From positions 868,001 to 932,000 of the forward strand of contig NZ_CP108109.1 in NCBI RefSeq assembly GCF_036199905.1: a stretch of DNA of 64,000 nucleotides. Direction: 5' to 3'. Source of the DNA: Streptomyces sp. NBC_00223. GTDB taxonomy: Bacteria > Actinomycetota > Actinomycetes > Streptomycetales > Streptomycetaceae. Of this stretch, positions 1 to 13,066 are shown piece after piece (position 1 is the first letter of the stretch; each line of letters begins with the position of its first letter). The notes under the pieces are model-generated. The model worked only from the letters and a program-made list of their open reading frames with translations. It had not been told where the DNA came from and did not search any database. The position numbers and the translations under genes are program-made.

Positions 1-645
1 CCGTTCGGTCACCAGCGCGCCGGCCGACTCCGCCTGCGCCAGGGCCTGGGCACGTACCCGGGGATCGAGCCCGTAGCCGGGCGGGGTGCGCAGGTCGAGC
101 AGCACCCCGCGGAAGCGGCTCAGGCCGAGCGCGAGCGCCACCGCGGTGTTGTTGCCCTCGCCGACGTACAGGACGCGCAGCCCCTCCACCTCGCCGAAGT
201 GCAGGGCGAGCGTGGTGAGGTCGGCGAGCGCCTGCGTCGGGTGTTCGTCCGCGCTCATCGCGTTGACCACGGCCATCCGCCGCTGCCCGGACGCCCATGC
301 CCGCATCTCCGCGGGATCGTCGGCGGTCCGTGCGACGAGGACGTCGAGCATGCCGGCCATCACCCGGCCGGTGTCCTCGCTGGTCTCCCCGGTGTTGGTC
401 TGCAGATCCCCCGGACCGTACGCGACGACGCCGGCGCCGAGCCTGAGGGCGCCGGCGGAGAACGCGGTGCGGGTACGGGTCGACGTCCGCCGGAAGTACA
501 CGCCGACCACGGCCCCGGCCAGGGTGGGGTCGGCCGGCCGGCCTGCGGCCGCGCGCCGCGCGTGGTCGGCGGCCCGGGCCACCACACCGCGCAGCGCGTC
601 GTCCGGCAGGTCGGACAGCGAGATGAGATGCCGCGCCTGCCTCAC
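1..645 (-). CDS. Ornithine/aspartate carbamoyltransferase-family protein (C-terminus outside window)
   Basis: Transfers a carbamoyl group from carbamoyl phosphate to an amino group, by family. The 215 visible residues contain the carbamoyl-phosphate loop STRTR (residues 55-59) and the HPTQ motif (135-138), both diagnostic of the OTC/ATC fold. The rest of the substrate domain lies beyond the left edge. The GTG start overlaps the TGA of the upstream sbnB-like gene (GTGA), so the two are translationally coupled; a second GTG lies 3 bases upstream. Because it sits in a diaminopropionate operon rather than with arginine genes, I infer that the acceptor is 2,3-diaminopropionate or a peptide bearing it, as for the carbamoyltransferases of tuberactinomycin (viomycin) pathways. 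A plain ornithine transcarbamylase cannot be excluded without the C-terminus. Confidence 0.85.
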   Translation of the reverse strand, partial: MRQARHLISLSDLPDDALRGVVARAADHARRAAAGRPADPTLAGAVVGVYFRRTSTRTRTAFSAGALRLGAGVVAYGPGDLQTNTGETSEDTGRVMAGMLDVLVARTADDPAEMRAWASGQRRMAVVNAMSADEHPTQALADLTTLALHFGEVEGLRVLYVGEGNNTAVALALGLSRFRGVLLDLRTPPGYGLDPRVRAQALAQAESAGALVTER

Positions 646-1646
646 CACCGTGACTCCTCGGCGAAGAACTCCTCGAACGCGTGGGCCGTGCCGTCCGCGC
701 GGCCCGCCGCCAGCACCTCCACACCGACCGCGATGTCGAGCACCCCCAGTCCGAAGGGGGAGAAGATCAGCGGCTTGTCGCGGGTGACCGTGAACTCGCC
801 CAGCACCAGGCCGGCGATCGTGCCGTCGATGAACTCACGGGTGCCGAACTTCTCCACCGCCAGATGCGGGGAGGTGCCCGCGTGCAGACAGTGCTCGATG
901 TCGTCGAGGACGTTGTGCGCGTCCGCCACCAGCTCCGGTCCGATGTCCCGCAGCGAGATGTTCAGCACCGTCTGGCCGGCCGCGAAGAACCCCGGCTCCG
1001 TGATGTACGGCGCCGGCGCCGTGGTGGCCAGGACGACCACGTCGGCGTCCGTGACCGATGCGCGCAGCGTGGCCCCGGTACGGGCGGAGAACCCCAGCGA
1101 ACGCGCGTACCGCGCGGACTTCTCCGCGTATTCGGGGACGGTGTCGTGCACGACCACTTCACCGACCGTCCAGTCGAGGTCGTGCAGGAACTCCAGTACG
1201 TTGCGCGAGATGACGCCGGCCCCGACCACCGTCACCCGGTCGGCCCGGCGCGACCCGTGCAGGTGTTCGGCGCCGAGTGCCGCGGAGGCCGCCGTCCGGG
1301 CCGCGCTGATCTGCGAGGCCTCCAGACAGGCGAAGGGGTACCCGGTGTCGAAGTCGTTGAGGATCAGCACCGCCGAGGCACGCGGGAGGTTGCGCGCCAG
1401 ATTGCCCGGGAAGCTGCCGATCCACTTCAGCCCCGCGACCGGTGGTGTGCCGCGCAGCAGGGCGGGCAGGGCGATGATGCGTGCCTCCGGCTTGTCCGGG
1501 AAACGCAGGAAGTAGCTGTCCGGGTTGACGGTGTCACCCCGGTGGTGTGCGCGGTAGGCGTCGTCGATCCGGGCGTGGATCCGGGTCCGTGACCGCTCGA
1601 CGACCGCGCGCACTGCCTTTCCGCCCATGACGTGGAAGGGCAGCAT
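642..1646 (-). CDS. sbnB: SbnB-type N-((2S)-2-amino-2-carboxyethyl)-L-glutamate dehydrogenase
   Basis: Member of the ornithine cyclodeaminase/mu-crystallin family. SbnB oxidatively cleaves the SbnA product (ACEGA) with NAD to give L-2,3-diaminopropionate and 2-oxoglutarate. The 334-residue length is normal for SbnB. The Rossmann loop GAGVIS is at residues 142-147, and the substrate-domain segments around KWIGSFPGN (74-82) and LNDFDTGYP (about 96-104) fit the family. An almost ideal Shine-Dalgarno AAGGAGGTGA ends 3 bases before the ATG, which fixes the start. It lies 3 bases downstream of the sbnA-like stop and overlaps the carbamoyltransferase start by 4 bases, so sbnA, sbnB and the carbamoyltransferase form one operon. 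VioK of viomycin biosynthesis is a functional equivalent. Confidence 0.9.
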   Translation of the reverse strand: MLPFHVMGGKAVRAVVERSRTRIHARIDDAYRAHHRGDTVNPDSYFLRFPDKPEARIIALPALLRGTPPVAGLKWIGSFPGNLARNLPRASAVLILNDFDTGYPFACLEASQISAARTAASAALGAEHLHGSRRADRVTVVGAGVISRNVLEFLHDLDWTVGEVVVHDTVPEYAEKSARYARSLGFSARTGATLRASVTDADVVVLATTAPAPYITEPGFFAAGQTVLNISLRDIGPELVADAHNVLDDIEHCLHAGTSPHLAVEKFGTREFIDGTIAGLVLGEFTVTRDKPLIFSPFGLGVLDIAVGVEVLAAGRADGTAHAFEEFFAEESRW

Positions 1647-1649
1647 GTG

Positions 1650-2681
1650 TCACCTCCTTGTCGTGGTCAGGCCGGGTGTGCCGGCGGCCTCGGCGGTCAG
1701 CGTCTGCGGCCCGAAGGTCTGCGCGACCCAGGCGTCCTCGTAGACCGTCCTCGCGTAGCGGTCGCCGAGATCCGGTGAGATCGCCACGATCCGCGAGCCC
1801 GCGGGCAGGGCCGGTGCCCGCTGGATCACCGCGGCCATCACCGCACCGGTCGACCCGCCGGCGAACAGGCCGCGGGTGCGGGCCATCCACCGGCAGGTGC
1901 GTACCGCGTCAGCCTCCGCGACCTGCACCATCTCGTCGACCAGTTCGGGCAGAAACAGTTCGGGCCGTCGGCTGGCGCCGATCCCGGGGATGAACCGCGG
2001 ACCGGCCGACGTCCCGAAGCTGACCGAGCCGACCGAGTCGACCGCGACGATCCGGGTCGCGGGCGACATCCGGCGGAAGTGGCTGACGCAGCCCATGATC
2101 GTTCCCGCCGAACCGATGCCGACGAACAGGTAGTCGGCGGCCGGCACCTCCGCGGTGATCGCGGCCGCGGTGCACCGGTCGTGCACGTTGCGGTTCGCGG
2201 GATTGGCGTACTGGTTGAGCCACACCAGGTCCGGATCGGCGGCGACGCGCTCCTCGATGTACGAGATGCGGCTGCCGAGGAAGCCGCCGCTGGCGTCCCG
2301 CTGATCGACCCGTACCGTCTCGGCGCCCAGCGCCCGCATCACGTCCAGGCTGTGCGGCGAGATGTTGGGATCGGTGACGCACGTGAAGAGGTAGCCCTTC
2401 GCCGCCGCCACCATCGCCAGCGCGATGCCGAGGCTGCCGGACGAGGACTCGATCAGACGGCTTCCCTTGTGCAGCAGACCTCGTTGCTCGGCGTCCTCGA
2501 CCATGGCGACGGCCGTCTTGAGCTTGACCGAGCCCGCGGGGTTGAGCCCCTCCATCTTGAGATAGACATCGACGTTCTCGACGGTGTCCCCCAGGTGGAG
2601 GAAGACATTGTCCAGAACCATTTCGTAGGCGTGCTCGAATATCACCGTCGCAACCCCAGGTGAGTGCCAGTGCAACCCCAT
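1650..2681 (-). CDS. sbnA: SbnA-type 2,3-diaminopropionate biosynthesis enzyme (PLP, cysteine-synthase fold)
   Basis: PLP-dependent beta-replacement enzyme of the cysteine synthase family. SbnA joins O-phospho-L-serine and L-glutamate to form ACEGA, the precursor of 2,3-diaminopropionate. The PLP lysine is K53 in NPAGSVK. The phosphate-binding serine/glycine loop ESSSGSLG is near residues 78-85, and a GSAGT loop follows about 100 residues later. Start chosen at ATG 2681 because GGAGG lies 5 bases upstream; longer in-frame extensions have no family similarity. Length is 343 residues, as expected. It is the first gene of the minus-strand operon and diverges from the condensation-domain gene across about 255 bp that must hold both promoters. 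Pairing with the SbnB-type gene is what distinguishes it from ordinary cysteine synthase. Confidence 0.9.
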   Translation of the reverse strand: MGLHWHSPGVATVIFEHAYEMVLDNVFLHLGDTVENVDVYLKMEGLNPAGSVKLKTAVAMVEDAEQRGLLHKGSRLIESSSGSLGIALAMVAAAKGYLFTCVTDPNISPHSLDVMRALGAETVRVDQRDASGGFLGSRISYIEERVAADPDLVWLNQYANPANRNVHDRCTAAAITAEVPAADYLFVGIGSAGTIMGCVSHFRRMSPATRIVAVDSVGSVSFGTSAGPRFIPGIGASRRPELFLPELVDEMVQVAEADAVRTCRWMARTRGLFAGGSTGAVMAAVIQRAPALPAGSRIVAISPDLGDRYARTVYEDAWVAQTFGPQTLTAEAAGTPGLTTTRR

Positions 2682-2936
2682 CCGTGCCTCCACGGGCTGA
2701 GGCGCCTCGGCGGCCGACGAGTACAGAGCGTAAGCAGCACCGGACCGCCGCAACAGGCAAATCGGCGGCAGTTTGCGGCCCCGCGCCGGACTCGGCAACT
2801 GCCCCGGGACCGGCCTTGAAGCGGCAGAAAGCAGGCAGCCGAGTTGCCGCCGCGCTGCCTGGCCCGCCCGGCACCGCCGTGCCCTACTGGGGCGGAGAAA
2901 TCCGCCGAGGCGCGCAAGTTCCAGGATCGGGAGCGC

Positions 2937-4400
2937 ATGTCCCTGATGGCCAGCAGCACGGTGCCGACCGGAGTCGGCTGCGCCCTGAGCATCGGGCAGG
3001 AGGCGCTGTGGTTCCTGCACGCCCTGGCACCCGACAGCAGCGCCTACAACACCGCCGCGGCCATGACGCTGGACTTCGACGTGGACGTCGCGGCGCTCAG
3101 GTCGGCCGTCCTCGCCACCGTCGCCGGCAACAGCATGCTCAACTGCCTGTTCCGGTCGACGCGCACGGGTCCTCTCCGGCTCCCGGACGCCGCCGCCCCC
3201 TACCCGTCGGTGTTCGAGGTGCGCCGCGTCGACGGCCCCACCGCCGGGGACCCGCTGTACGCGGCGGCGGTGGAGGCGTCCCGGCGCCCGTTCCGGCTGG
3301 ACCGCGAGGCGCCCGTGCGGGTCTCACTGCTGCGTCCGGACACCGGCGGTGACGTGCTCGTGGTCACCGCCCACCACATCGCGCTGGACAACGTCTCGCA
3401 CCTCAGGCTGTTCTCCGACCTCCTGACGGCCTACGGGCGCGTCGTCGGTGGCACCGCGCGGACCCGACCGGAGCGGGACGGCGACCCGGCGGACGGTGAC
3501 ACGGCGGACGGTGACACGGACTCCGGCGGCCCCGGGGGCACGGCCGCCGACGGGCCGGACCCGGGCGCCGACTATCCCGCCTTCGTGCGGCGGGAGCAGG
3601 ACTTCCTGGCCTCACCGCGCGGCGAGTCGGCGCGCCGGCACTGGCAGCGTGTCCTCCAGGCCGTCCCCCGCGACCCGTTGCTCGTCGGCGACCTGCCGAG
3701 GCCGGGCGTCTACGAGTTCACCGGCGACCAGACCGAACTCCTGGTCCCGGCCGGTCTCACCGCCCGCACCGCGGAGCTGGCGGCCGAGGCGAACACGACC
3801 CCGTTCGCCGTCCTGTTCGCCGTGTTCCAGCTGCTCCTGTACAGCCTGACCGGGGAGCGGCTGCGGCTGGTGGGCTATCCCGCGGCGGTACGTCCCGGTG
3901 CCCGGTTCCGGTCGGCGACCGGCTACTACGTCAACACGCTGCCGTTCCCTGCGCACGTCGAACCCGACGATTCGTTCGCCGGCCTGCTGCGGCGGACCGC
4001 CGCCGAACTGTGGTCCGGGCTCGTCCACCGCGCGTACCCGTTCGCGCTGATGTCGCGGCTGGCCGACCGGCCCCGTACGGCGGACCGGGCGGGCCTGGTC
4101 GGGGTGCTCTTCGTGGTGACCGAGGAGGACCCGTCGCAGGTGGCCGACCTGAGTGTCCTGCCGCCGGACCACCGCTTCCACGTGTATCCGCTGCCGCAGC
4201 AGCAGGGGCAGTTCGACCTGACGCTCCAGCTGTCCCGGCGCGGAGCGGAGACCGCCGTCGTCCTGAAGTACAACACCTCGCTGTTCACCGCCGGCGCGGC
4301 CCGCGCCGTCGCAGAACGCTATCTCGGCCTGCTCACCGCGGCGGCCGAGGGCACTCTGCCGGGCAGGCTGGGCGACCTCGCGCCGGCCGCGGCCCGGTGA
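2937..4400 (+). CDS. Stand-alone NRPS condensation-domain protein
   Basis: A single condensation (C) domain of 487 residues without attached adenylation or carrier domains. The family forms amide or ester bonds between carrier-bound acyl groups and an amine. The active-site motif appears as HHIALDN (residues 146-152): the second, catalytic histidine and the aspartate of HHxxxDG are kept, while the final glycine is asparagine. The C-terminal half (from about residue 250) is the acceptor subdomain with the expected GYYVNTLP segment. A disordered Asp/Gly-rich insert occupies about residues 178-205. Start at ATG 2937 after GGGAG; an ATG nine bases later is possible. It is followed 77 bp downstream by the aaRS-like ligase, which suggests that the pair loads and condenses an amino acid without a classical NRPS. 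Confidence 0.85.
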   Translation: MSLMASSTVPTGVGCALSIGQEALWFLHALAPDSSAYNTAAAMTLDFDVDVAALRSAVLATVAGNSMLNCLFRSTRTGPLRLPDAAAPYPSVFEVRRVDGPTAGDPLYAAAVEASRRPFRLDREAPVRVSLLRPDTGGDVLVVTAHHIALDNVSHLRLFSDLLTAYGRVVGGTARTRPERDGDPADGDTADGDTDSGGPGGTAADGPDPGADYPAFVRREQDFLASPRGESARRHWQRVLQAVPRDPLLVGDLPRPGVYEFTGDQTELLVPAGLTARTAELAAEANTTPFAVLFAVFQLLLYSLTGERLRLVGYPAAVRPGARFRSATGYYVNTLPFPAHVEPDDSFAGLLRRTAAELWSGLVHRAYPFALMSRLADRPRTADRAGLVGVLFVVTEEDPSQVADLSVLPPDHRFHVYPLPQQQGQFDLTLQLSRRGAETAVVLKYNTSLFTAGAARAVAERYLGLLTAAAEGTLPGRLGDLAPAAAR

Positions 4401-4477
4401 GGCGCCGCGGACTCCCCCACCCACCCGACGGCCGGGCGCGCCGCGCCGCGACGGCCTGTTGAAGGAGCTGATGAGTT

Positions 4478-5395
4478 GTGACCGTGCACACCACGGCGAA
4501 CGCGCCGACCGGCGACGCGGGTCCCGGAACCGGCGGCGGGCCCGGCACCGACCGGTCCCTCGACCGGCTCGTCTCCACCGGCTGGCTGCTGCCCACCGGC
4601 GTCGCCGGGGTGCTCGGCTTCACCGCGCGGTTCGAGTCGGCGCTGGCCACCGTGCACCGGGCCCTCACCCGTGCGCATCCGGACGGCACACCAGGGCCGT
4701 CCTGGCACGCCCCCGTGGTCCCGCGCGGCCAGATCGAGCGCGCCGAGTACAGCGAATCCTTCCCCCATCTCCTCGGCTCCGTCCACGCCCTGGACCAGGG
4801 CACCGCCGAGGACGCCGGGCTCGGCGAGGACGCGCGGGTGCCCACCGACACCGTGCTCGCCCCGGCCGCGTGCTACAGCGTCTATCCCGCCCTCGCCGAC
4901 AACACGCTGAGCGGGGCCCGGTACTTCGATGTCGCCGGATCCTGCTACCGGCACGAGGCGACCAGCGAGGTCGGCCGGTTCCGCTCGTTCCGTATGCGCG
5001 AGTTCGTCGCCGTGGGCGCCGAGGACACCGCGCTCGCCTGGCAGGAGGACTGGCTCGACCGCTGCCGCGCCCTGTTCGCCGGCCTCGGGGTCGCGGTCGA
5101 GGTGCAGACGGCGAGCGACCCGTTCTTCGGACCCGGCGCCCGCTTCATGCGCTCCAGCCAGTTGCAGCAGAACCTGAAGTACGAGTTCGTGGCCCCGGTG
5201 TACCCCGGGGACCCGGGCACGGCGATCGCCTCGGTCAATCTGCACAGGGACCACCTGGGACAGCGCTTCCGCATCGGCTCGCCGGAGGGCGGGTGGGCGC
5301 ACAGCAGTTGCGCGGCCTTCGGCCTGGAACGCGTCGTCCTCGCGCTGGTGCGGGCGCACGGCGACACCCCGGCCGACTGGCCCGCGCTCGGCTGA
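4478..5395 (+). CDS. Class-II aaRS-like amino acid:[carrier protein] ligase
   Basis: Resembles the truncated atypical seryl-tRNA synthetase homologues that activate a small amino acid with ATP and transfer it to the phosphopantetheine arm of a carrier protein instead of tRNA. It has 305 residues and no N-terminal tRNA-binding arm. Motif 2 is seen as CYRHEATSEVGRFRSFR (156-172) and motif 3 as FGLERVVLAL (281-290, with R285). Cys132, Glu160 and Cys278 match the Cys-Glu-Cys zinc site of this group. GTG start, with AAGGAG about 10 bases upstream. Next to a free condensation domain and diaminopropionate genes it probably supplies an aminoacyl building block. No carrier protein is encoded in the window, so its partner must lie to the left or elsewhere. 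Substrate specificity cannot be read from sequence. Confidence 0.82.
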   Translation: MTVHTTANAPTGDAGPGTGGGPGTDRSLDRLVSTGWLLPTGVAGVLGFTARFESALATVHRALTRAHPDGTPGPSWHAPVVPRGQIERAEYSESFPHLLGSVHALDQGTAEDAGLGEDARVPTDTVLAPAACYSVYPALADNTLSGARYFDVAGSCYRHEATSEVGRFRSFRMREFVAVGAEDTALAWQEDWLDRCRALFAGLGVAVEVQTASDPFFGPGARFMRSSQLQQNLKYEFVAPVYPGDPGTAIASVNLHRDHLGQRFRIGSPEGGWAHSSCAAFGLERVVLALVRAHGDTPADWPALG

Positions 5396-5438
5396 CGTCC
5401 GCGCGAGGGCGGCCGGGTGCCGCCCCGCGCGGGACCGC

Positions 5439-6737
5439 TCAGTGGGCGCCCGCGGCCTCCCGCAGGACGTCGGCCACATACGGCGCCAGCCGGTACCGGT
5501 ACCGGTGGTGGGGATCGGAGACCACCAGCGAGGTCTCCAGCAGGTCGGGGAACGGCAGCAGCGGGTTCACCGCCGAGGGGAACCCGGCCTCGCCGTGCGC
5601 CGCCACGTCGTCGAGAGTGAACCAGCGCCGTGCCACGGCCGCGGCGATCCACGTCAGCACCGAACGGTGGTCCTCGGTCAGGAGGTCCAGGGTCCACCGG
5701 ATGCCTTCTGCCACCGACCTCTGATGGCGCAGCAGCGCGTGGTCGTTGGACCGCAGGAGGTCCACGCTCGGGCCGTCGGCGAGGAGCACGCGCACCGGGA
5801 TGGTGCGCAGCCGCTCCGCCGCGAACTCCAGATAGCGCGGCAGGCCGCCGAGCCGGCGGCATAACTCGGTGACCGAGGCGAGGTCGTGGTCCGTCTCGGC
5901 GTGCGCCCCGACGTGCCGCAGCAGCAGTTCCACCGCCGGCGCCGGCGTGTCCGGGCCGTCGTCGTCCACCGACAGCGGCTTGATCTCGTGGTTGATGCCG
6001 AGCCGTTCGGTGAGCCGTCTGCGCGCGGTGATCACGATGTGCATTCCGGGGTGGGCGGCAAGGAGGTAACGGGAGGCCCTGACGGTGGTCTCCGGCACGT
6101 GTTCGGCGTTGTCGAGGACCACCAGGACGCGGAGGTCCCGGCCGTATCCGCCATCGGGCCCGGCACCGTGGGCACTGTGCGCGCCCTTCGTGCCGCCCCT
6201 GTCCAGGTGCCGCAGCACCCGCCGCAGGACGACGGCGGTCTGGTCGCCGTGCGGTACCCGTTCCGGCGGCAGGTCGCCGAGTTCGACGACCACGACCCCG
6301 TCGGGGAAGTGCCTGGACACGCGGGCGGTGGTGTCGAGCGCGAGCCTGGTCTTGCCCACCCCGCCGGGGCCCAGAAAGGTCGTGAGCCGGTCGATCCGCA
6401 CCGCGTGCGCGAGTCGCTCGCGCTCCGCGCGGTCGCCCACGACGGTGCCGCCCGGAGGGCGGGGACCGTGCCAGGGCACACCCGCGTCGGGCGTGTCGCC
6501 CTCCGGCGGTTCCTGGGCGCTGTCGAGGTCCAGGGCCTGCGCCAGCAGGTCCATCGACGAGCGGCGGGGGTTGAGGACCCGGCCGAGTTCGAGGTTGCGG
6601 ATGGTGCGGACGCTCAGCCCGGAGTGCTCGGCGAGCTGCTCCTGTGTCCAGCCGCGCAGGTACCGTAGCTCGGCCAGCCGGCGGGCCGTCAGCGAGTGCG
6701 GGATCTCGGTCCGTACGGAGGACCGGTCCGCGCTCAC
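5439..6737 (-). CDS. XRE-type HTH / NB-ARC ATPase transcriptional regulator
   Basis: Predicted cytoplasmic pathway-specific regulator of 432 residues. It has an N-terminal XRE-type helix-turn-helix (about residues 28-55, GWTQEQLAEHSG then LSVRTIRNLE) followed by an NB-ARC-like P-loop ATPase domain with Walker A GPGGVGKT (123-130). No C-terminal TPR or WD array follows, so it is shorter than typical SARP or STAND regulators. The GTG start overlaps the stop of the upstream ABC exporter gene (GTGA), which places it last in the minus-strand exporter operon; an in-frame extension upstream is merely the antisense of that gene. It converges with the aaRS-like gene, 43 bp apart. I infer control of this cluster; the effector is unknown. 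Confidence 0.8.
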   Translation of the reverse strand: MSADRSSVRTEIPHSLTARRLAELRYLRGWTQEQLAEHSGLSVRTIRNLELGRVLNPRRSSMDLLAQALDLDSAQEPPEGDTPDAGVPWHGPRPPGGTVVGDRAERERLAHAVRIDRLTTFLGPGGVGKTRLALDTTARVSRHFPDGVVVVELGDLPPERVPHGDQTAVVLRRVLRHLDRGGTKGAHSAHGAGPDGGYGRDLRVLVVLDNAEHVPETTVRASRYLLAAHPGMHIVITARRRLTERLGINHEIKPLSVDDDGPDTPAPAVELLLRHVGAHAETDHDLASVTELCRRLGGLPRYLEFAAERLRTIPVRVLLADGPSVDLLRSNDHALLRHQRSVAEGIRWTLDLLTEDHRSVLTWIAAAVARRWFTLDDVAAHGEAGFPSAVNPLLPFPDLLETSLVVSDPHHRYRYRLAPYVADVLREAAGAH

Positions 6738-8563
6738 CGGTAGCCCCTGGACTGGAGTCCATACAGCTCGGCGTAGGTTCCCCCCAGTGCCACGAGCTCG
6801 CGGTGGGTGCCGGTCTCGGTGACCTGTCCGCCGTCGAGGACGACGATCAGGTCGGCCATGCTGACGGTGGAGAACCGGTGGGACACCAGAACGGTGATGC
6901 CGCCCGAGTCGCGTGCCTCGCGGGCGGCGGCCGCGAACCCTTCGAACAGGGCGTGCTCGGTGTGCGCGTCGAGTGCCGCGGTGGGTTCGTCGAACACGCG
7001 GAGCAGGGGCGTGTCGCGCATGAGACCGCGGGCGAGCGCGAGCTTCTGCCACTGTCCTCCGGACAGCTCCACGCCGTTCGGCCACCGCGTGCCGAGCCGG
7101 GTGTCCTGTCCGTCGGGAAGGGCGGCGACCGCGCCGGCCGCGCCGCCGCGCTCGAGTGCCGCGCCCACGGCGGCGCGGTCGTCGATCATGGGCAGATCGC
7201 CCACGCCGACGTTCTCCCGCACGGTGAACTCCAGCCGGGCGTAGTCCTGGAACGCGCCCGCGCACCGGCCGCGCCAGGCCGCCGGGGGAAACGCGGCCAG
7301 GTCGACCCCGTCGACCAGGATCGCCCCAGAGTCGGGCCGGTAGAACCCGCACAACATCTTGACCAGCGTCGACTTCCCGGCGCCGTTGTCACCGACGAGG
7401 GCGACCACGGAGCCGGGGGGCAGGCGCAGGCTCACACCGCGCAGCACCTCGCGGGTCCGGCCGCCGCCGGTGTAGCGGAAGTGCACGTCACGCAGTTCGA
7501 TGCCGTCGCGCAGCCGCGCGGGCACCTCGGCCGGCGCTCCCCCGCCGCCGGGCCGGGCGGCGTTCGCCCGTGCGGTCGCGGTCGCCCGCCGCTCGTCGGC
7601 GGCGTACCGGCGCAGCCAGGTGAACCGGCGTCCGACGGTGATGACTTGGAGGAAGTACGTGCCGTAGCCGACGGCGGTGCCCACGGTGGCGCTCATCTGT
7701 CCGGCGAGGCCGACGACGAGTACGACGTCCCCCGCGGTCGCCTCCTTGCGGACGACCATCAGCAGCACGAGCGTGATCGCGCCGATGTAGCCGAGCGCGT
7801 TGATGCCGCCGTCGAGCGCGGCGAGTCCCGAGGCCCGCCAGTCGGCCCGGTTGCGCCGCTCGGCGACCTCCGAGGCGACCGCGTGGTGCCGTTTCCCGAG
7901 CACGTCGGTGAGGCCGAAGACGCGCAGCTCCGCCCCGTAGGCGGGTGAGGTTCCCAGCTCGAACAGGTGTCTTCTCAGGCGCTCGGACTCACTCGTCGCC
8001 TCGTCCGCCCGTCTGCGCAGGTCGCGGCGGACCTTGCCGAGCCAGAGCGAGGGCAGCGCGAGCAGGGGGAGGAACAGCAGCCAGGGATCGATGCCGACGA
8101 GCAGGACGGCGGTCATGGCGAGGGTGACGCCCACCCGGAGCAGGCCCGCGGTCGCGTTCACCATGCCGGACAGCTGGCCCTGCTCCTCGCGGATGCGCTG
8201 GACCTGGTCGAGGTAGTCGGGGTTCTCGTGGTGGGCGAGGCCGGGGGTTCCGCCGACGAGACCCATGAGTTCGCGGGTGGCGACGGCTCCGGCGCGCTCC
8301 TGCACGGTGAACAGGCAGTGCACGTAGTAGAAGACGGAGGCGAGCGCGCCGGCGCAGGTGGCGCCGAGCAGCAGCGCGGCGATCAGGGCGCCGTGCAGGT
8401 CACCGGAGCGTGACGCGTCGACGATGATCTTGGCACCGAGCGCGCCGATCGGGAACGACACCGCGGTCACGATGCCGGTGAGGAGTTGGCAGGTCGCGTG
8501 CCAGGGTGCGGCGCGGAAGCCGATCCCCATGAGCGCGCCGTAGGACCGCAGGGAGTCACGCAC
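6734..8563 (-). CDS. ABC exporter (TMD-NBD half transporter) 1
   Basis: Half-size ABC exporter of 609 residues with an N-terminal six-helix membrane domain and a C-terminal ATPase domain. Walker A is GDNGAGKST, the signature LSGGQWQ, Walker B LLRVFDEPTAALD and the H-loop VLVSHRFST, all intact. It overlaps the preceding exporter gene by 8 bases and the following regulator by 4, so the three are co-transcribed. Close similarity to its neighbour in motif spelling (GDNGAGKS, LSGGQWQ) suggests a heterodimer with two competent ATP sites. Location in the diaminopropionate cluster suggests product export or self-resistance. The substrate cannot be deduced. Confidence 0.88.
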   Translation of the reverse strand: MRDSLRSYGALMGIGFRAAPWHATCQLLTGIVTAVSFPIGALGAKIIVDASRSGDLHGALIAALLLGATCAGALASVFYYVHCLFTVQERAGAVATRELMGLVGGTPGLAHHENPDYLDQVQRIREEQGQLSGMVNATAGLLRVGVTLAMTAVLLVGIDPWLLFLPLLALPSLWLGKVRRDLRRRADEATSESERLRRHLFELGTSPAYGAELRVFGLTDVLGKRHHAVASEVAERRNRADWRASGLAALDGGINALGYIGAITLVLLMVVRKEATAGDVVLVVGLAGQMSATVGTAVGYGTYFLQVITVGRRFTWLRRYAADERRATATARANAARPGGGGAPAEVPARLRDGIELRDVHFRYTGGGRTREVLRGVSLRLPPGSVVALVGDNGAGKSTLVKMLCGFYRPDSGAILVDGVDLAAFPPAAWRGRCAGAFQDYARLEFTVRENVGVGDLPMIDDRAAVGAALERGGAAGAVAALPDGQDTRLGTRWPNGVELSGGQWQKLALARGLMRDTPLLRVFDEPTAALDAHTEHALFEGFAAAAREARDSGGITVLVSHRFSTVSMADLIVVLDGGQVTETGTHRELVALGGTYAELYGLQSRGYR

Positions 8564-10613
8564 GTCGGGCCTCCGCGTCCATCGAGTCCACGGTGTTCAT
8601 CGCGTCCGCCGTGTTCCTCGCGTCCGCCGTGTTCCTCGCGTCCGCCGTGTTCCTCGCGTCCGCCGTGCTTATCGCGTCCACGGTGTTCATCGCGTCCGTC
8701 GCGTCCACGGCGTCCGTCGCGTCCACGGCGTCCGGCACCGTCAACGGGGTGCCGTCGAGTCCGCCGCCGTCGGCGAACCGTTCCGCCTGGATGCTGAACA
8801 TCCGGGCGTACCTGCCGCCGAGCAGCATGAGTTCGTCATGGCTTCCCTCTTCGACGACCTCACCGTGGTCCAGCACCACGATCCGGTCCACCCGGCGCAC
8901 GGTGGAGAACCGGTGCGAGATCAGCACGGTGGTCAGACCGGCGGTGAGTTCGAGGAAGCGGTCGTAGATCTCGGCCTCGGCCCGGATGTCCAGGGCGGCG
9001 GTCGGTTCGTCCAGTACGAGGACCTGGGCCCCCGCCTGGACCGCGAACAGGGCGCGGGCAAGGGCGATGCGCTGCCACTGTCCGCCGGACAGGTCGGTGC
9101 CGCCGGTGTACTCGGGGGACAGCACGGTGTCCCAGCCGTGGGGGAACGACTCGATGAGCGGGAGGATCCCGGCGCGTTCGGCGGCCGTCCGCATCAGCTC
9201 CCGGTCGTCGGCGCGGTGGGGCGCGCCGAGCGTGATGTTGTCCGCGACGCTGAGGTGGTACCGGGCGAAGTCCTGGAACAGCACGCTGATCCGGCGGCGC
9301 CAGGCCGGCGGGTCCAGGTCGCCCAGGTCCCGGCCGTCCACCTCGATCCGGCCGGCGGTCGGGGCGTGCAGCCCGCACAGCAGCTTCACGAGGGAACTCT
9401 TGCCGGCGCCGTTGTCGCCGACGATCGCCAGCGACCGGCCGACGGGGATGGTGAGGTCGACGCGTCGCAGGGCGTTCCGTTCGGTGCCCGGATACCGCAG
9501 GGCGACCGCGCGGTAGCGGATGGCCTCGGCGGGCAGGGCGTCCGTCGTTCCCCCCGCCTCGGGCGCCGGTCCGGCTGCCGACCGCGGGCTGTCCGAGGTG
9601 CGCTCGCCGAGCGCCAGGACATGGGGGACCGCGGCTGACGCGAACGCGAGCTGGGCGTTCTGGTCGTCGAAGGCGGTGTAGTTGTTGGCGAGCGCGAGGG
9701 CCTGGGTGTAGACGGCGATGGCCGCCAGGCCGAGGTGATGGTGTGCGGCGGCCCACGCGAGCATCCCGTACGAGAGCAGGTTGACGGCGCCGAGCATGCC
9801 GGTGGTGGCGGCGATGAGCCGTGCGCGCGGCCGGCGTTTGCGCCACACCGGTTCCATGGCGGCCCGCCAGGTGCTCTCGAACCGGGACGTCAGCCAGTCG
9901 AGCATGCCCCAGAGCCGCAGCTCCTTCGCGGGTCCTGAGGTGACCGCGAGGTCGCGGAGGTATTCGGCCTCCTGAAGCGCCTTGCTCTGGCCGAACGCGA
10001 GCTCACCGACCCGGAAGTACTCGCGCTGCATGAAGTGCACCGCGAGCGGCCAGGCGATGAGCCACAACAGGCCGAGCCACCAGTGGAAGGTGAGCAGGAC
10101 GGCGGCGCCCATGAGCGCCCGCAGCCACGCGGGCAGCACATAGGCGAGGGCGGAGACGGCCTGGCCGGGCCGTCCGCTGTCGGAGACGCCGAGCCCGCGC
10201 ACGACCCGCAGGGCCGCGAGTACGTCGGGGTCCGAGAGATGGTCCACCCGGTCCGGACGGCCGACGGCCGCCAGCGCCTCCTGCTGGAGGAAGCGGTCGG
10301 TGTCGCGGCCGAGAGTGTCCGCCAGGGTGCTGACCAGCGGGGGCACGCTCTGCTGGAGCACCACGAGCGCGCCGGTGAAGCCGAGCAGGGTGAACAGGTG
10401 CCCGCCTGCGGGCGAGGACAGTCCGTCCCGCAGCGCATCCGGCACCGCCCCGATGAGCAGGCCGGTCGCCACCGCGACGGCGGTGGGAAGGGTCGAGACG
10501 ATCACCAGACCGGCCAGGCCCCAGGCGGTCCTGACTCGGCTGATCCGCGGAAGCAACCGCACCAGGGCGACCGTTCCGGCGAGTGCGGGTGGGATGCGCA
10601 ACCTAAATAACAC
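8556..10613 (-). CDS. ABC exporter (TMD-NBD) 2 with repetitive C-terminal tail and TTA codon 2
   Basis: Half-size ABC exporter of 685 residues and probable partner of the next gene. Membrane domain first, then the NBD with Walker A GDNGAGKSS, signature LSGGQWQ, Walker B VLVLDEPTAALD and H-loop ISHRFST. The last 60 residues or so are a low-complexity tail built from NTADARNTADAR-like units encoded by a minisatellite; this is absent from normal exporters. GTG start at 10613 is supported by AAGGGA seven bases upstream. The second codon is TTA (10608-10610), the rare leucine codon read by the bldA tRNA in Streptomyces, so translation of the exporter operon may be restricted to late growth. First gene of the operon, preceded by about 1 kb of non-coding DNA. 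Confidence 0.87.
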   Translation of the reverse strand: MLFRLRIPPALAGTVALVRLLPRISRVRTAWGLAGLVIVSTLPTAVAVATGLLIGAVPDALRDGLSSPAGGHLFTLLGFTGALVVLQQSVPPLVSTLADTLGRDTDRFLQQEALAAVGRPDRVDHLSDPDVLAALRVVRGLGVSDSGRPGQAVSALAYVLPAWLRALMGAAVLLTFHWWLGLLWLIAWPLAVHFMQREYFRVGELAFGQSKALQEAEYLRDLAVTSGPAKELRLWGMLDWLTSRFESTWRAAMEPVWRKRRPRARLIAATTGMLGAVNLLSYGMLAWAAAHHHLGLAAIAVYTQALALANNYTAFDDQNAQLAFASAAVPHVLALGERTSDSPRSAAGPAPEAGGTTDALPAEAIRYRAVALRYPGTERNALRRVDLTIPVGRSLAIVGDNGAGKSSLVKLLCGLHAPTAGRIEVDGRDLGDLDPPAWRRRISVLFQDFARYHLSVADNITLGAPHRADDRELMRTAAERAGILPLIESFPHGWDTVLSPEYTGGTDLSGGQWQRIALARALFAVQAGAQVLVLDEPTAALDIRAEAEIYDRFLELTAGLTTVLISHRFSTVRRVDRIVVLDHGEVVEEGSHDELMLLGGRYARMFSIQAERFADGGGLDGTPLTVPDAVDATDAVDATDAMNTVDAISTADARNTADARNTADARNTADAMNTVDSMDAEARRA
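8593..8730. repeat. 18-bp minisatellite in exporter C-terminal tail
   Basis: Four consecutive 18-bp units near GTGTTCCTCGCGTCCGCC (8593-8664), two diverged units (8665-8700) and then 9-bp half units to about 8730. All units are multiples of three, so copy-number change would lengthen or shorten the exporter tail without breaking the frame. Confidence 0.9.
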
Positions 10614-11623: not shown

Positions 11624-12736
11624 TCAGCCGGTGTGGAGGATCCGGAAGCGGTCGGGTTCCGCCGGATCCCGGTCGACGACCTGGATCGGCGGCCACGCCC
11701 ATTGCCACACGCTGATGCCCGGCGTGCGGGAGAACCGGATCTGCCCGCGGGTGCCTTCGACTGCGACGCGCGGCCAGGATTCGGCGATGCGCGCCCGGTC
11801 GGTGCCGTGAGAACGCAGCACATCGGCGAGGACGGCGACCGCGTCGTAGCCCTCGAAGGCCACGAAGGAGGGCGCTTCGGCCAGCCGCTCGCGCAGGGCC
11901 GTCCCGACTCGTGCCCCGAGTGGGCCGAGGTGCTCGGGCAGGTAGCGCAGGAACGGGATCGCGGCGCCGTCGTCGCCCAGCAGCGTCACCCATTCGGCGA
12001 ACTCCGGTTGCCCGGCCGGAGCACCGATCGTGATCTCGGCGAGGCGCGGGTCGCGGCGGACGGACTTGACGATCGGCACGGCCGGCTCCGGGTTGCCGAC
12101 CAGAAGAAGGAGGGCTGTCGCACGGTTGTCGACGAGTTCGTCGCACAAGGCCGTGGGGGTGAGCGCGCGCGTGTCGAGTTCGATGACGGTGCCGCCGCGT
12201 GGAGCGAGGTGGTCCCGTAGAACGCGGGCCCCGGACGCCCAGTAGACACTCGGCTCGGCTGCTACGGCGATACGGCTGTGGCCCGCGCCGACGAGGAAGT
12301 CCGCGTAGATCCGCCAGCCGCGGGACTGCGCCGGGGCGAGGCGCGCGACCCATTCCGTCGGCTGTTCGGTGAGCGCGTCGAGCACCACCGACGAGCAGAG
12401 GAACGGCAGGCCGAGGGCATCGGCCCTGGCGGCAGCGGCGCGAGCGACGACACTGTGGTACTCCCCCGCCACGGCGGCCACGCCCAGGCGGGCCAATTCG
12501 TCCACGGCCGCCGCGGCCCTCCGCGGATCAGCCGCGGTGTCCCGGACCACCAGCTCCAACGGTCTTCCGCCGATCCCGCCGGCGTCGTTGACTTCGCCGA
12601 CGGCCAGTTCGAGTCCGGCGAGCAAGTGCCGGCCCGCCTCGACCCAGCCGGGCCGAGTCAGCGGAACGAGAGCGCCGATCCGGACGGACGGTCCGTCAGT
12701 CCGCGCCGCTTCAGGCGGCGATGGTGGCGTACTCAT
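11624..12736 (-). CDS. Periplasmic-binding-protein-like (Leu/Ile/Val type) protein without signal peptide
   Basis: A 370-residue type-I periplasmic binding fold of the branched-chain amino acid/amide receptor group: IGALVPLTRPGW near the N-terminus, LAVGEVNDAGGIGGRPLEL, and an AGEYHS hinge-like segment. No signal peptide or lipobox is visible, so it is probably cytoplasmic and a sensor rather than a transporter component, and no LIV permease genes are nearby. Start at ATG 12736 preceded by GGGAG about 10 bases upstream; the longer frame adds 17 residues of unlikely composition. It stands alone between the exporter upstream region and a 330-bp gap with no gene. Confidence 0.75.
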   Translation of the reverse strand: MSTPPSPPEAARTDGPSVRIGALVPLTRPGWVEAGRHLLAGLELAVGEVNDAGGIGGRPLELVVRDTAADPRRAAAAVDELARLGVAAVAGEYHSVVARAAAARADALGLPFLCSSVVLDALTEQPTEWVARLAPAQSRGWRIYADFLVGAGHSRIAVAAEPSVYWASGARVLRDHLAPRGGTVIELDTRALTPTALCDELVDNRATALLLLVGNPEPAVPIVKSVRRDPRLAEITIGAPAGQPEFAEWVTLLGDDGAAIPFLRYLPEHLGPLGARVGTALRERLAEAPSFVAFEGYDAVAVLADVLRSHGTDRARIAESWPRVAVEGTRGQIRFSRTPGISVWQWAWPPIQVVDRDPAEPDRFRILHTG

Positions 12737-13066
12737 GTGTTGGCGTCTCCCGTGTGACGATGCGGTCGCGGTCCGCCCGGATCGCAAAGCGGCAAGGCCC
12801 GGTGGTACGCGTGCGTCTCATCTCGCCGTGGCGGGCGCACCCGGGTGACCATGCCGGACATTGCATCCACCACGACGCCAACGGGCAACCGATTATCCGT
12901 TCGCCCCGAACCCGCGCGAGCCCCACGCCGCCCGCGTCCCGGCCCGACTCGAAGCGGCAGCGGGTAATCCCCGGCGTTTTCCGCCCCAAGGTCGGCGCCC
13001 TCCGCCACGGGGTCACAGGTGTGCGTCACCGGCAGCGGGTCAACGCCGAGGCCGGACGGCCAGGGA

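What the first reader, a model, noticed from the sequence alone, without database searches (positions are those of the whole stretch)
1..10613. Minimal peptide-like pathway: diaminopropionate supply, carbamoyltransferase, free condensation domain and an aaRS-derived carrier-protein ligase
Seen: SbnA/SbnB pair, coupled carbamoyltransferase, stand-alone C domain with HHIALDN, and a tRNA-arm-less class-II synthetase with the Cys-Glu-Cys zinc site, plus two exporters and a regulator. Known: SbnA/SbnB make L-2,3-diaminopropionate; tuberactinomycin pathways carbamoylate it; aaRS-like ligases charge carrier proteins. Inferred: a product containing ureido-alanine or diaminopropionate joined to an amino acid loaded by the aaRS-like enzyme, without adenylation domains. 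I do not recognise this combination as a described pathway.
Basis: partly seen in the sequence, partly recalled or inferred. Interest (0 to 1): 0.8.

Follow-up and report, generated by a model that had tools for sequence, protein, structure and literature searches.

The report
Lipopeptide cluster with synthetase-like amino-acid loader
These genes are one end of a conserved streptomycete gene cluster that is predicted to make an unusual fatty-acid-capped peptide, likely using an enzyme derived from a tRNA synthetase, in place of one of the usual loading domains, to attach one of its amino acids.

Summary
The genes reported are real, but they are not a minimal pathway without adenylation domains. 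They are the right end of one ~33-kb cluster (genome 845.7-878.6 kb) found, partly rearranged, in 6 of 394 family genomes searched. To the left lie a free ACP, an ATP-grasp enzyme, a BtrK-type decarboxylase, a KASIII, an acyl-CoA dehydrogenase, an AsnO-like oxygenase and a three-protein NRPS with a T-thioesterase: five carrier domains but two adenylation domains with core motifs; a third is decayed in every copy read. The carbamoyltransferase carries published diaminopropionate-transcarbamylase motifs, so SbnA/SbnB/CTase is predicted to supply Dap and beta-ureidoalanine. The ACP cassette matches the route to N-acyl-dehydro-beta-alanine in bolagladins and AFC-BC11, a unit also found in enamidonins. 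A relative with the cassette plus SbnA/B has Dap-like, aromatic and Gly codes, the enamidonin composition. In 4 of 6 clusters a free carrier gene sits between the stand-alone C domain and the aaRS-like ligase, a split C/carrier/aaRS module. The window genome and A. epipremni lack it, so the ligase's partner there is open. Best reading: a new variant of the acyl-dehydro-beta-alanyl lipopeptides. The product and the ligase's amino acid are unknown.

The parts
1..648 (-). 2,3-diaminopropionate-type transcarbamylase (cut by window edge; continues to genome 867704)
   Evidence: PF02729/PF00185; below the OTCase equivalog cut-off (206.9 vs 280.85 bits); HDLP and TRWxTTG motifs
642..1646 (-). SbnB (2,3-diaminopropionate biosynthesis)
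   Evidence: TIGR03944 384.9 bits, cut-off 326.9
1650..2681 (-). SbnA (2,3-diaminopropionate biosynthesis); first gene of a 12-gene leftward run
   Evidence: TIGR03945 383.7 bits, cut-off 349.95; start chosen by hand
2937..4400 (+). stand-alone condensation domain, motif HHIALDN
   Evidence: PF00668 189.7 bits; motif HHxxxDN in 6 of 6
4478..5395 (+). aaRS-like amino acid--[carrier protein] ligase without tRNA-binding arm
   Evidence: NF005479 261.1 bits (cut-off 357, so below it); PDB 4h2w/3mey E about 1e-50 with aligned Cys/Glu/Cys
5439..6737 (-). XRE-type regulator with ATPase-like domain
   Evidence: HTH_3; AAA_22 below its cut-off; found in 5 of 5 relatives
6734..8563 (-). ABC exporter 1
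   Evidence: PF00005; found in 5 of 5 relatives
8556..10613 (-). ABC exporter 2; right edge of the conserved cluster
   Evidence: PF00005; found in 5 of 5 relatives

Best explanation
The finding is the right end of a conserved ~33-kb cluster that is predicted to make an N-acyl-dehydro-beta-alanyl lipopeptide containing diaminopropionate and/or beta-ureidoalanine, with one carrier likely charged by the aaRS-like ligase instead of an adenylation domain. Shown: gene content, motifs and conservation. Inferred: (1) SbnA/SbnB make Dap and the DPTCase-type enzyme makes beta-ureidoalanine. (2) The ATP-grasp enzyme loads aspartate on the free ACP; the BtrK-type enzyme decarboxylates it to beta-alanyl-ACP; KASIII, perhaps with its neighbour KAS2, N-acylates it with a fatty acyl group; the acyl-CoA dehydrogenase desaturates it to acyl-dehydro-beta-alanyl-ACP. 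(3) The NRPS (A1-MbtH / A2-T-C-T / C-T-C-A*-T / T-TE) adds residues from A1 (Asn-like code, probably 3-hydroxy-Asn made by the AsnO-like oxygenase) and A2 (unassigned). (4) The free C domain plus the aaRS-like ligase form a split module. In 4 of 6 clusters its carrier is the small free ACP encoded between them. In the window genome that carrier is gone, and the ligase would charge another one, perhaps the last carrier of the NRPS, whose own A domain has decayed.
For: Left-flank genes and families. BtrK is the top structure match of the decarboxylase, E 6e-90. Precedents: BtrK-like decarboxylase, free ACP, KASIII-like enzyme and acyl-CoA dehydrogenase in bolagladin (PMC7756342 section 7) and AFC-BC11 (PMC12186527 passages). 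Enamidonin-class peptides carry this unit plus two Dap (PMC11204786). Relative G293 has the same cassette plus SbnA/B and Dap-like, aromatic and Gly codes, read by hand. DPTCase motifs; zmaTUV makes beta-ureidoalanine (PMC9586298 passages). AsnO is the best match of the oxygenase, 262.7 bits, next 143.5, arginine hydroxylase type 137. A1 and A2 core motifs in 6 of 6; no A core motif in N3 copies and no AMP-binding hit in the own N3. Carrier gene between C and ligase in 4 of 6. Cluster unity: 6 of 394 genomes with KASIII at 50% identity or more, the set present in all six except the holo-ACP synthase, 5 of 6.
Against: No product is known. The amino acid loaded by the ligase is untested; Gly/Ala precedents are recalled. 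The window genome and G043 lack the small carrier, so the ligase's partner there is a guess. The last NRPS carrier joins only one aaRS-linked carrier with support (UFBoot 99; wider group 38), and its type is common, mostly without a ligase in view (111 of 394 genomes, the six included). The loader is ATP-grasp, not the VinN-like adenylation enzyme of bolagladin. The code of A2 is not the Dap-like code read in G293, so no A domain here is assigned to Dap. X and KAS2 could not be assigned with confidence. The holo-ACP synthase is missing in G043.
Confidence: 0.67

Rival explanations
1. A tuberactinomycin-like logic: the acyl-CoA dehydrogenase desaturates a Dap or ureidoalanine residue in the peptide to beta-ureidodehydroalanine, as proposed for VioJ/VioL.
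For: SbnA/B, a Dap transcarbamylase and an acyl-CoA dehydrogenase occur together; VioJ/VioL proposal in PMC10880069 (passages).
Against: The dehydrogenase's relatives lie with the ACP/decarboxylase/KASIII cassette in G121, G091 and G109, where no CTase or SbnA/B hit was found in the roughly 58 kb read. The oxygenase is AsnO-like rather than arginine-hydroxylase-like.
Confidence: 0.1
2. A butirosin-like side arm: ATP-grasp loads glutamate, the BtrK-type enzyme makes GABA-ACP and the luciferase-like monooxygenase hydroxylates it, giving an aminohydroxybutyryl unit.
For: BtrK itself is the best structure match; a luciferase-like monooxygenase is in the same gene run.
Against: That monooxygenase belongs to the MupA/Atu3671 family (TIGR04020, 445.8 bits against a cut-off of 244.45). 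KASIII and acyl-CoA dehydrogenase fit the dehydro-beta-alanine route. BtrK-like BolN is assigned to an aspartate-based pathway and AfcP was shown to act on carrier-bound Asp.
Confidence: 0.15
3. The aaRS-like ligase charges the free starter-unit ACP (not an NRPS-type carrier), as may happen in the small KASIII-ACP-KAS2-ligase-C clusters of other streptomycetes.
For: Such small clusters are in 6 of 12 ligase neighbourhoods fetched; the 12 were picked from 31 ligase hits outside the six clusters, partly because a KASIII hit lay near. Their ACPs were the best non-orthologous match of this cluster's ACP (61 bits) in a comparison that did not include the ACPs of G121/G091.
Against: In the tree the cluster's ACP sits with the ACPs of G121/G091, which have no ligase hit. 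Here the ACP has its own ATP-grasp/decarboxylase pair. The cassette occurs without a ligase hit in the stretches read from G121, G091, G109 and G293. 4 of 6 clusters have a separate carrier beside the ligase.
Confidence: 0.2
4. One reading: Dap/ureidoalanine joined by the free C domain to one ligase-loaded amino acid, with no adenylation domains.
For: Holds for the genes inside the reported stretch taken alone.
Against: The NRPS with two A domains that keep their core motifs is in the same conserved cluster in 6 of 6 genomes.
Confidence: 0.04

Closest known systems
Bolagladin / AFC-BC11 dehydro-beta-alanine cassette (Burkholderia)
   Same: Free ACP, BtrK-like decarboxylase, KASIII-like enzymes, acyl-CoA/acyl-ACP dehydrogenase (section and passages read)
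   Different: Loader here is an ATP-grasp enzyme instead of an adenylation enzyme; Dap and ureidoalanine genes added; citrate-primed fatty acid genes were neither noticed nor searched for. The bol and afc sequences were not compared directly
Enamidonin / autucedine / olenamidonin lipopeptides (Streptomyces)
   Same: Acyl-dehydro-beta-alanine plus Dap in a short peptide; relative G293 shows the same cassette with SbnA/B
   Different: Here: transcarbamylase, AsnO-like oxygenase, free C domain, aaRS-like ligase and an NRPS with two live A domains; no Phe or Gly code. The aut cluster itself was not found among what I could fetch, so it is not compared
Zwittermicin A zmaTUV cassette
   Same: Genes for beta-ureidoalanine from Dap by a transcarbamylase (PMC9586298 and PMC4581275 passages)
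   Different: Placed in an acyl-dehydro-beta-alanyl lipopeptide cluster; zma sequences were not compared directly
Amino acid:[carrier protein] ligase Bll0957 (Bradyrhizobium)
   Same: Class-II core without tRNA arm, aligned Cys/Glu/Cys, carrier partner in solved complexes
   Different: Here in an NRPS cluster, paired with a free C domain; amino acid unknown; below the NF005479 cut-off

Membership tests
2,3-diaminopropionate transcarbamylase (DPTCase) | HDLP motif in place of the OTCase Cys form | tested here: met
   HDLP in 5 of 5 proteins aligned, own included (G182, with a frame break, left out); criterion from PMC4581275 passages
2,3-diaminopropionate transcarbamylase (DPTCase) | (T/S)RWQTTG loop (DBTCase has TRWQSMG) | tested here: met
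   TRWQTTG in 4 of 5; the window protein has TRWETTG, one residue off. The paper itself calls the DPTCase/DBTCase difference unclear
SbnA/SbnB Dap synthesis | score above the curated equivalog cut-offs | tested here: met
   TIGR03945 and TIGR03944 both above cut-off
aaRS-like amino acid:[carrier protein] ligase | class-II core without tRNA-binding arm, zinc site Cys/Glu/Cys | tested here: met
   305 aa, PF00587 core only, 26.3 bits against a cut-off of 29.3; the three residues align with Bll0957 and are kept in 6 of 6; that they bind zinc is recalled
aaRS-like amino acid:[carrier protein] ligase | NF005479 curated cut-off | tested here: not met
   261.1 bits against 357; filed as 'like', not as a member of that equivalog
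aaRS-like amino acid:[carrier protein] ligase | charges a carrier protein | not testable with these tools
   needs an enzyme assay; indirect support from the adjacent carrier gene in 4 of 6 clusters
Bolagladin-type dehydro-beta-alanine cassette | BtrK-like decarboxylase + free ACP + KASIII-like + acyl-CoA dehydrogenase together | tested here: met
Bolagladin-type dehydro-beta-alanine cassette | VinN-like aspartate adenylation enzyme as loader | tested here: not met
   no adenylation enzyme among the 12 genes of the run; an ATP-grasp enzyme (PF18604, PF02222) is there
Enamidonin/autucedine lipopeptide cluster | A-domain codes for Gly, Phe and Dap | tested here: not met
   own codes DLPGIAEVGK and DAWSCATIDK, read by hand with recalled pocket positions, final Lys assumed; Gly/aromatic/Dap-like codes are in G293
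Tuberactinomycin (viomycin/capreomycin) cluster | VioC-type arginine hydroxylase for capreomycidine | tested here: not met
   oxygenase matches AsnO at 262.7 bits, arginine beta-hydroxylase at 137.4
Tuberactinomycin (viomycin/capreomycin) cluster | capreomycidine synthase VioD | not tested
   not searched for

The most novel reading that the evidence does not exclude
An NRPS line has swapped a decayed adenylation domain for a dispersed module made of a free C domain, a small free carrier and a tRNA-synthetase-derived ligase. In the Actinacidiphila pair the small carrier is lost and the ligase charges the ACP-like last carrier of the NRPS directly. The line makes an acyl-dehydro-beta-alanyl lipopeptide with beta-ureidoalanine, a combination I did not meet in my literature searches.
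Probability: 0.35. Interest if true: 0.75.

Novelty: new variant of a known kind. Interest (0 to 1): 0.58.

Why it matters
It would link two worlds of amino-acid activation in one assembly line: NRPS adenylation domains and tRNA-synthetase-derived carrier-protein ligases. It gives a testable role to an aaRS-like family seen in 35 of 394 family genomes at E 1e-40 or better. It also points to a hidden lipopeptide with beta-ureidoalanine; its enamidonin-type relatives inhibit enterococci (PMC11204786).

Tried and rejected
Structure models of X and KAS2 (from L048, single sequence) had mean pLDDT 41.5 and 33.0 and were not used for fold search. My by-eye reading of X as a degenerate acyl-CoA dehydrogenase subunit was not supported by profile comparison (probability 0.1%) or hmmsearch. 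KAS2 as a Cys-less KASIII partner is only weakly supported (probability 11%, E 0.0027; hmmsearch E 3e-4 at best).

The cispentacin lead from the ACP model AmcB (37.6 bits, cut-off 80) was dropped after passages of PMC10698177: I saw no counterpart of its adenylating loader AmcH in this gene run.

I first took the last NRPS carrier for the ligase's specific partner because it resembles ligase-adjacent carriers. The larger search showed such carriers to be common, and a separate carrier was found beside the ligase in 4 clusters, so this is now only a candidate.

No aut (autucedine) or kutzneridine cluster was obtained; S. olivaceus was not among the 120 rows listed (2914 hits), and many rows bear no or cut names. 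The paper search for carrier-protein-ligase work listed nothing of use. Literature searches listed no paper whose title or abstract start describes this gene combination; lists were capped at 20 of 60 and 20 of 79, and papers outside the open-access library were not seen.
Full report
What was checked. The window is bases 868001-932000 of a 7.96-Mb one-contig genome. Its same-genus relative G043 has a contig of 335362 bases carrying the cluster, the length of the Actinacidiphila epipremni PRB2-1 contig found with the ATP-grasp enzyme, so the host is probably an Actinacidiphila (inference). All genes named in the finding are present at the stated places.

Left flank. SbnA, SbnB and the transcarbamylase are the first of 12 leftward genes; neighbours overlap or lie at most 66 bases apart (starts chosen by hand): then KASIII, ATP-grasp, BtrK-type decarboxylase, ACP, KAS2 (no family), X (no family), acyl-CoA dehydrogenase, holo-ACP synthase, MupA-family luciferase-like monooxygenase. 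Converging on them is an NRPS: N1 (A1 and an MbtH-like tail, no carrier found), N2 (A2-T-C-T), N3 (C-T-C-remnant-T). Upstream of N1 lie a T-thioesterase and a type II thioesterase, then, on the other strand, an AsnO-like oxygenase and a second free C domain.

One cluster. KASIII at 50% identity or more was found in 6 of 394 family genomes: own, G043, G073, G090, G182, G071. All six carry the transcarbamylase, SbnA/B, ATP-grasp, decarboxylase, ACP, KAS2, X, dehydrogenase, monooxygenase, free C domain, ligase, regulator, both exporters, N1-N3, T-thioesterase, type II thioesterase and AsnO-like oxygenase. The holo-ACP synthase is in 5 of 6 (no hit and no such frame in G043). The second free C domain is in 2 of 6 (own, G043); its 32-34% hits elsewhere lie in other C domains. 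In four genomes the NRPS block lies on the other side, beyond exporter 2, so shared presence is not just shared flanks. G182 copies have several frame breaks, left as they are.

Precursors. A review defines 2,3-diaminopropionate transcarbamylase by HDLP and (T/S)RWQTTG (PMC4581275, passages). Here 5 of 5 aligned proteins have HDLP; four have TRWQTTG and the window protein TRWETTG. With SbnA/B above cut-off, Dap and beta-ureidoalanine supply is the best reading, as for zmaTUV in zwittermicin (PMC9586298, passages).

Starter unit. In bolagladin biosynthesis a BtrK-like enzyme, a free ACP, KASIII-like enzymes and an acyl-CoA dehydrogenase are proposed to make N-acyl-dehydro-beta-alanine; deleting the dehydrogenase gave the dihydro compounds (PMC7756342, section 7 and passages). 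AFC-BC11 uses a related set (PMC12186527, passages). The enamidonin class carries this unit and two Dap in a Phe-Dap-Dap-Gly peptide (PMC11204786, parts 1 and 2 of 3). Genome G293 holds the same cassette with SbnA/B and an NRPS whose three readable codes, read by hand with recalled pocket positions, are Dap-like, aromatic and Gly. This supports assigning the cassette to acyl-dehydro-beta-alanine. Against: the loader here is ATP-grasp, not a VinN-like enzyme, and the bol, afc and aut sequences were not compared. The cassette also occurs without SbnA/B or transcarbamylase hits in G121, G091 and G109.

NRPS. A1 (DLPGIAEVGK) and A2 (DAW[S/T]CATIDK) keep their motifs in 6 of 6 clusters (read by hand). 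The third A domain shows neither a GPTE-type nor a TSGTTG-type core in the N3 frames read (six; the G182 copy is interrupted), is almost gone in own and G043, and gives no AMP-binding hit in the own N3. The A1 type also occurs in the same 20-kb stretch as an AsnO-like oxygenase in G024 (L105), which fits (3-hydroxy-)Asn. The second C domain of N3 reads ECHPILEG in place of HHxxxDG in 6 of 6. Five carriers thus face two live A domains and the ligase.

The ligase and the free C domain. The ligase aligns with Bll0957, Cys/Glu/Cys included; it stays below the NF005479 cut-off. In G073, G090, G182 and G071 a small carrier gene (73-115 aa as read, mutual identity 62-77%) lies between the C domain and the ligase. 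It is absent from the window genome and G043: a whole-genome search gave only distant carriers (best E 4e-5 and 7e-7), none at this place. Elsewhere the ligase often has a carrier nearby: 25 of 47 short ligase loci, about 1.5 kb of flank on each side, at domain E 1e-4 or better. The last carrier of N3 is not of the usual peptidyl type. It matches stand-alone ACPs of known structure best (6m01_B E 2e-11, then 8k4r, 5czd; the ligase-partner ACP 4h2w_C at 4e-4). In a 68-sequence tree it joins the ligase-adjacent carrier of G100 (SH 0.96; UFBoot 99), but the wider ligase-adjacent group is poorly supported (SH 0.76; UFBoot 38). Such carriers are common (111 of 394 genomes, the six included). It is a candidate, not a shown partner.

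Conclusion. The cluster is a new variant of the acyl-dehydro-beta-alanyl lipopeptides with a beta-ureidoalanine cassette and a split, ligase-fed module. The product, the ligase's amino acid and, in this genome, its carrier remain open.

Noticed in passing
L098-L103 (G111, G156, G050, G174, G192, G041): Small clusters with KASIII, ACP, KAS2, aaRS-like ligase and a free C domain, with no hit to this NRPS's adenylation domains between them, near an ABC-type ATPase hit: 6 of the 12 ligase neighbourhoods fetched, which were partly picked for a nearby KASIII hit.
   Followed up: partly
L095 5307-11806 and L093 11567-17883: Gene runs carrier / acyl-CoA dehydrogenase-like / aaRS-like ligase (about 60% identical to the window's) / reductase-like / AMP-ligase-like protein in two family genomes; names from reading the sequences.
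   Followed up: partly
L051 and L036 (G293): A likely enamidonin-type cluster: dehydro-beta-alanine cassette, SbnA/B and NRPS codes for Dap-like, aromatic and Gly residues; its decarboxylase is 99% identical to one of Streptomyces parvus.
   Followed up: partly
own genome 7.908 Mb (L037): A second KASIII/KAS2-like pair next to a C domain in the same genome.
   Followed up: no
own genome about 795-814 kb (L013, L047): A very large NRPS (open frame 7386 aa) lies about 30 kb left of this cluster, outside the conserved block.
   Followed up: no
window 11624-12787 (-): A Peripla_BP_6 substrate-binding-type protein (112 bits) just right of the cluster edge; not looked for in the related clusters.
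   Followed up: no
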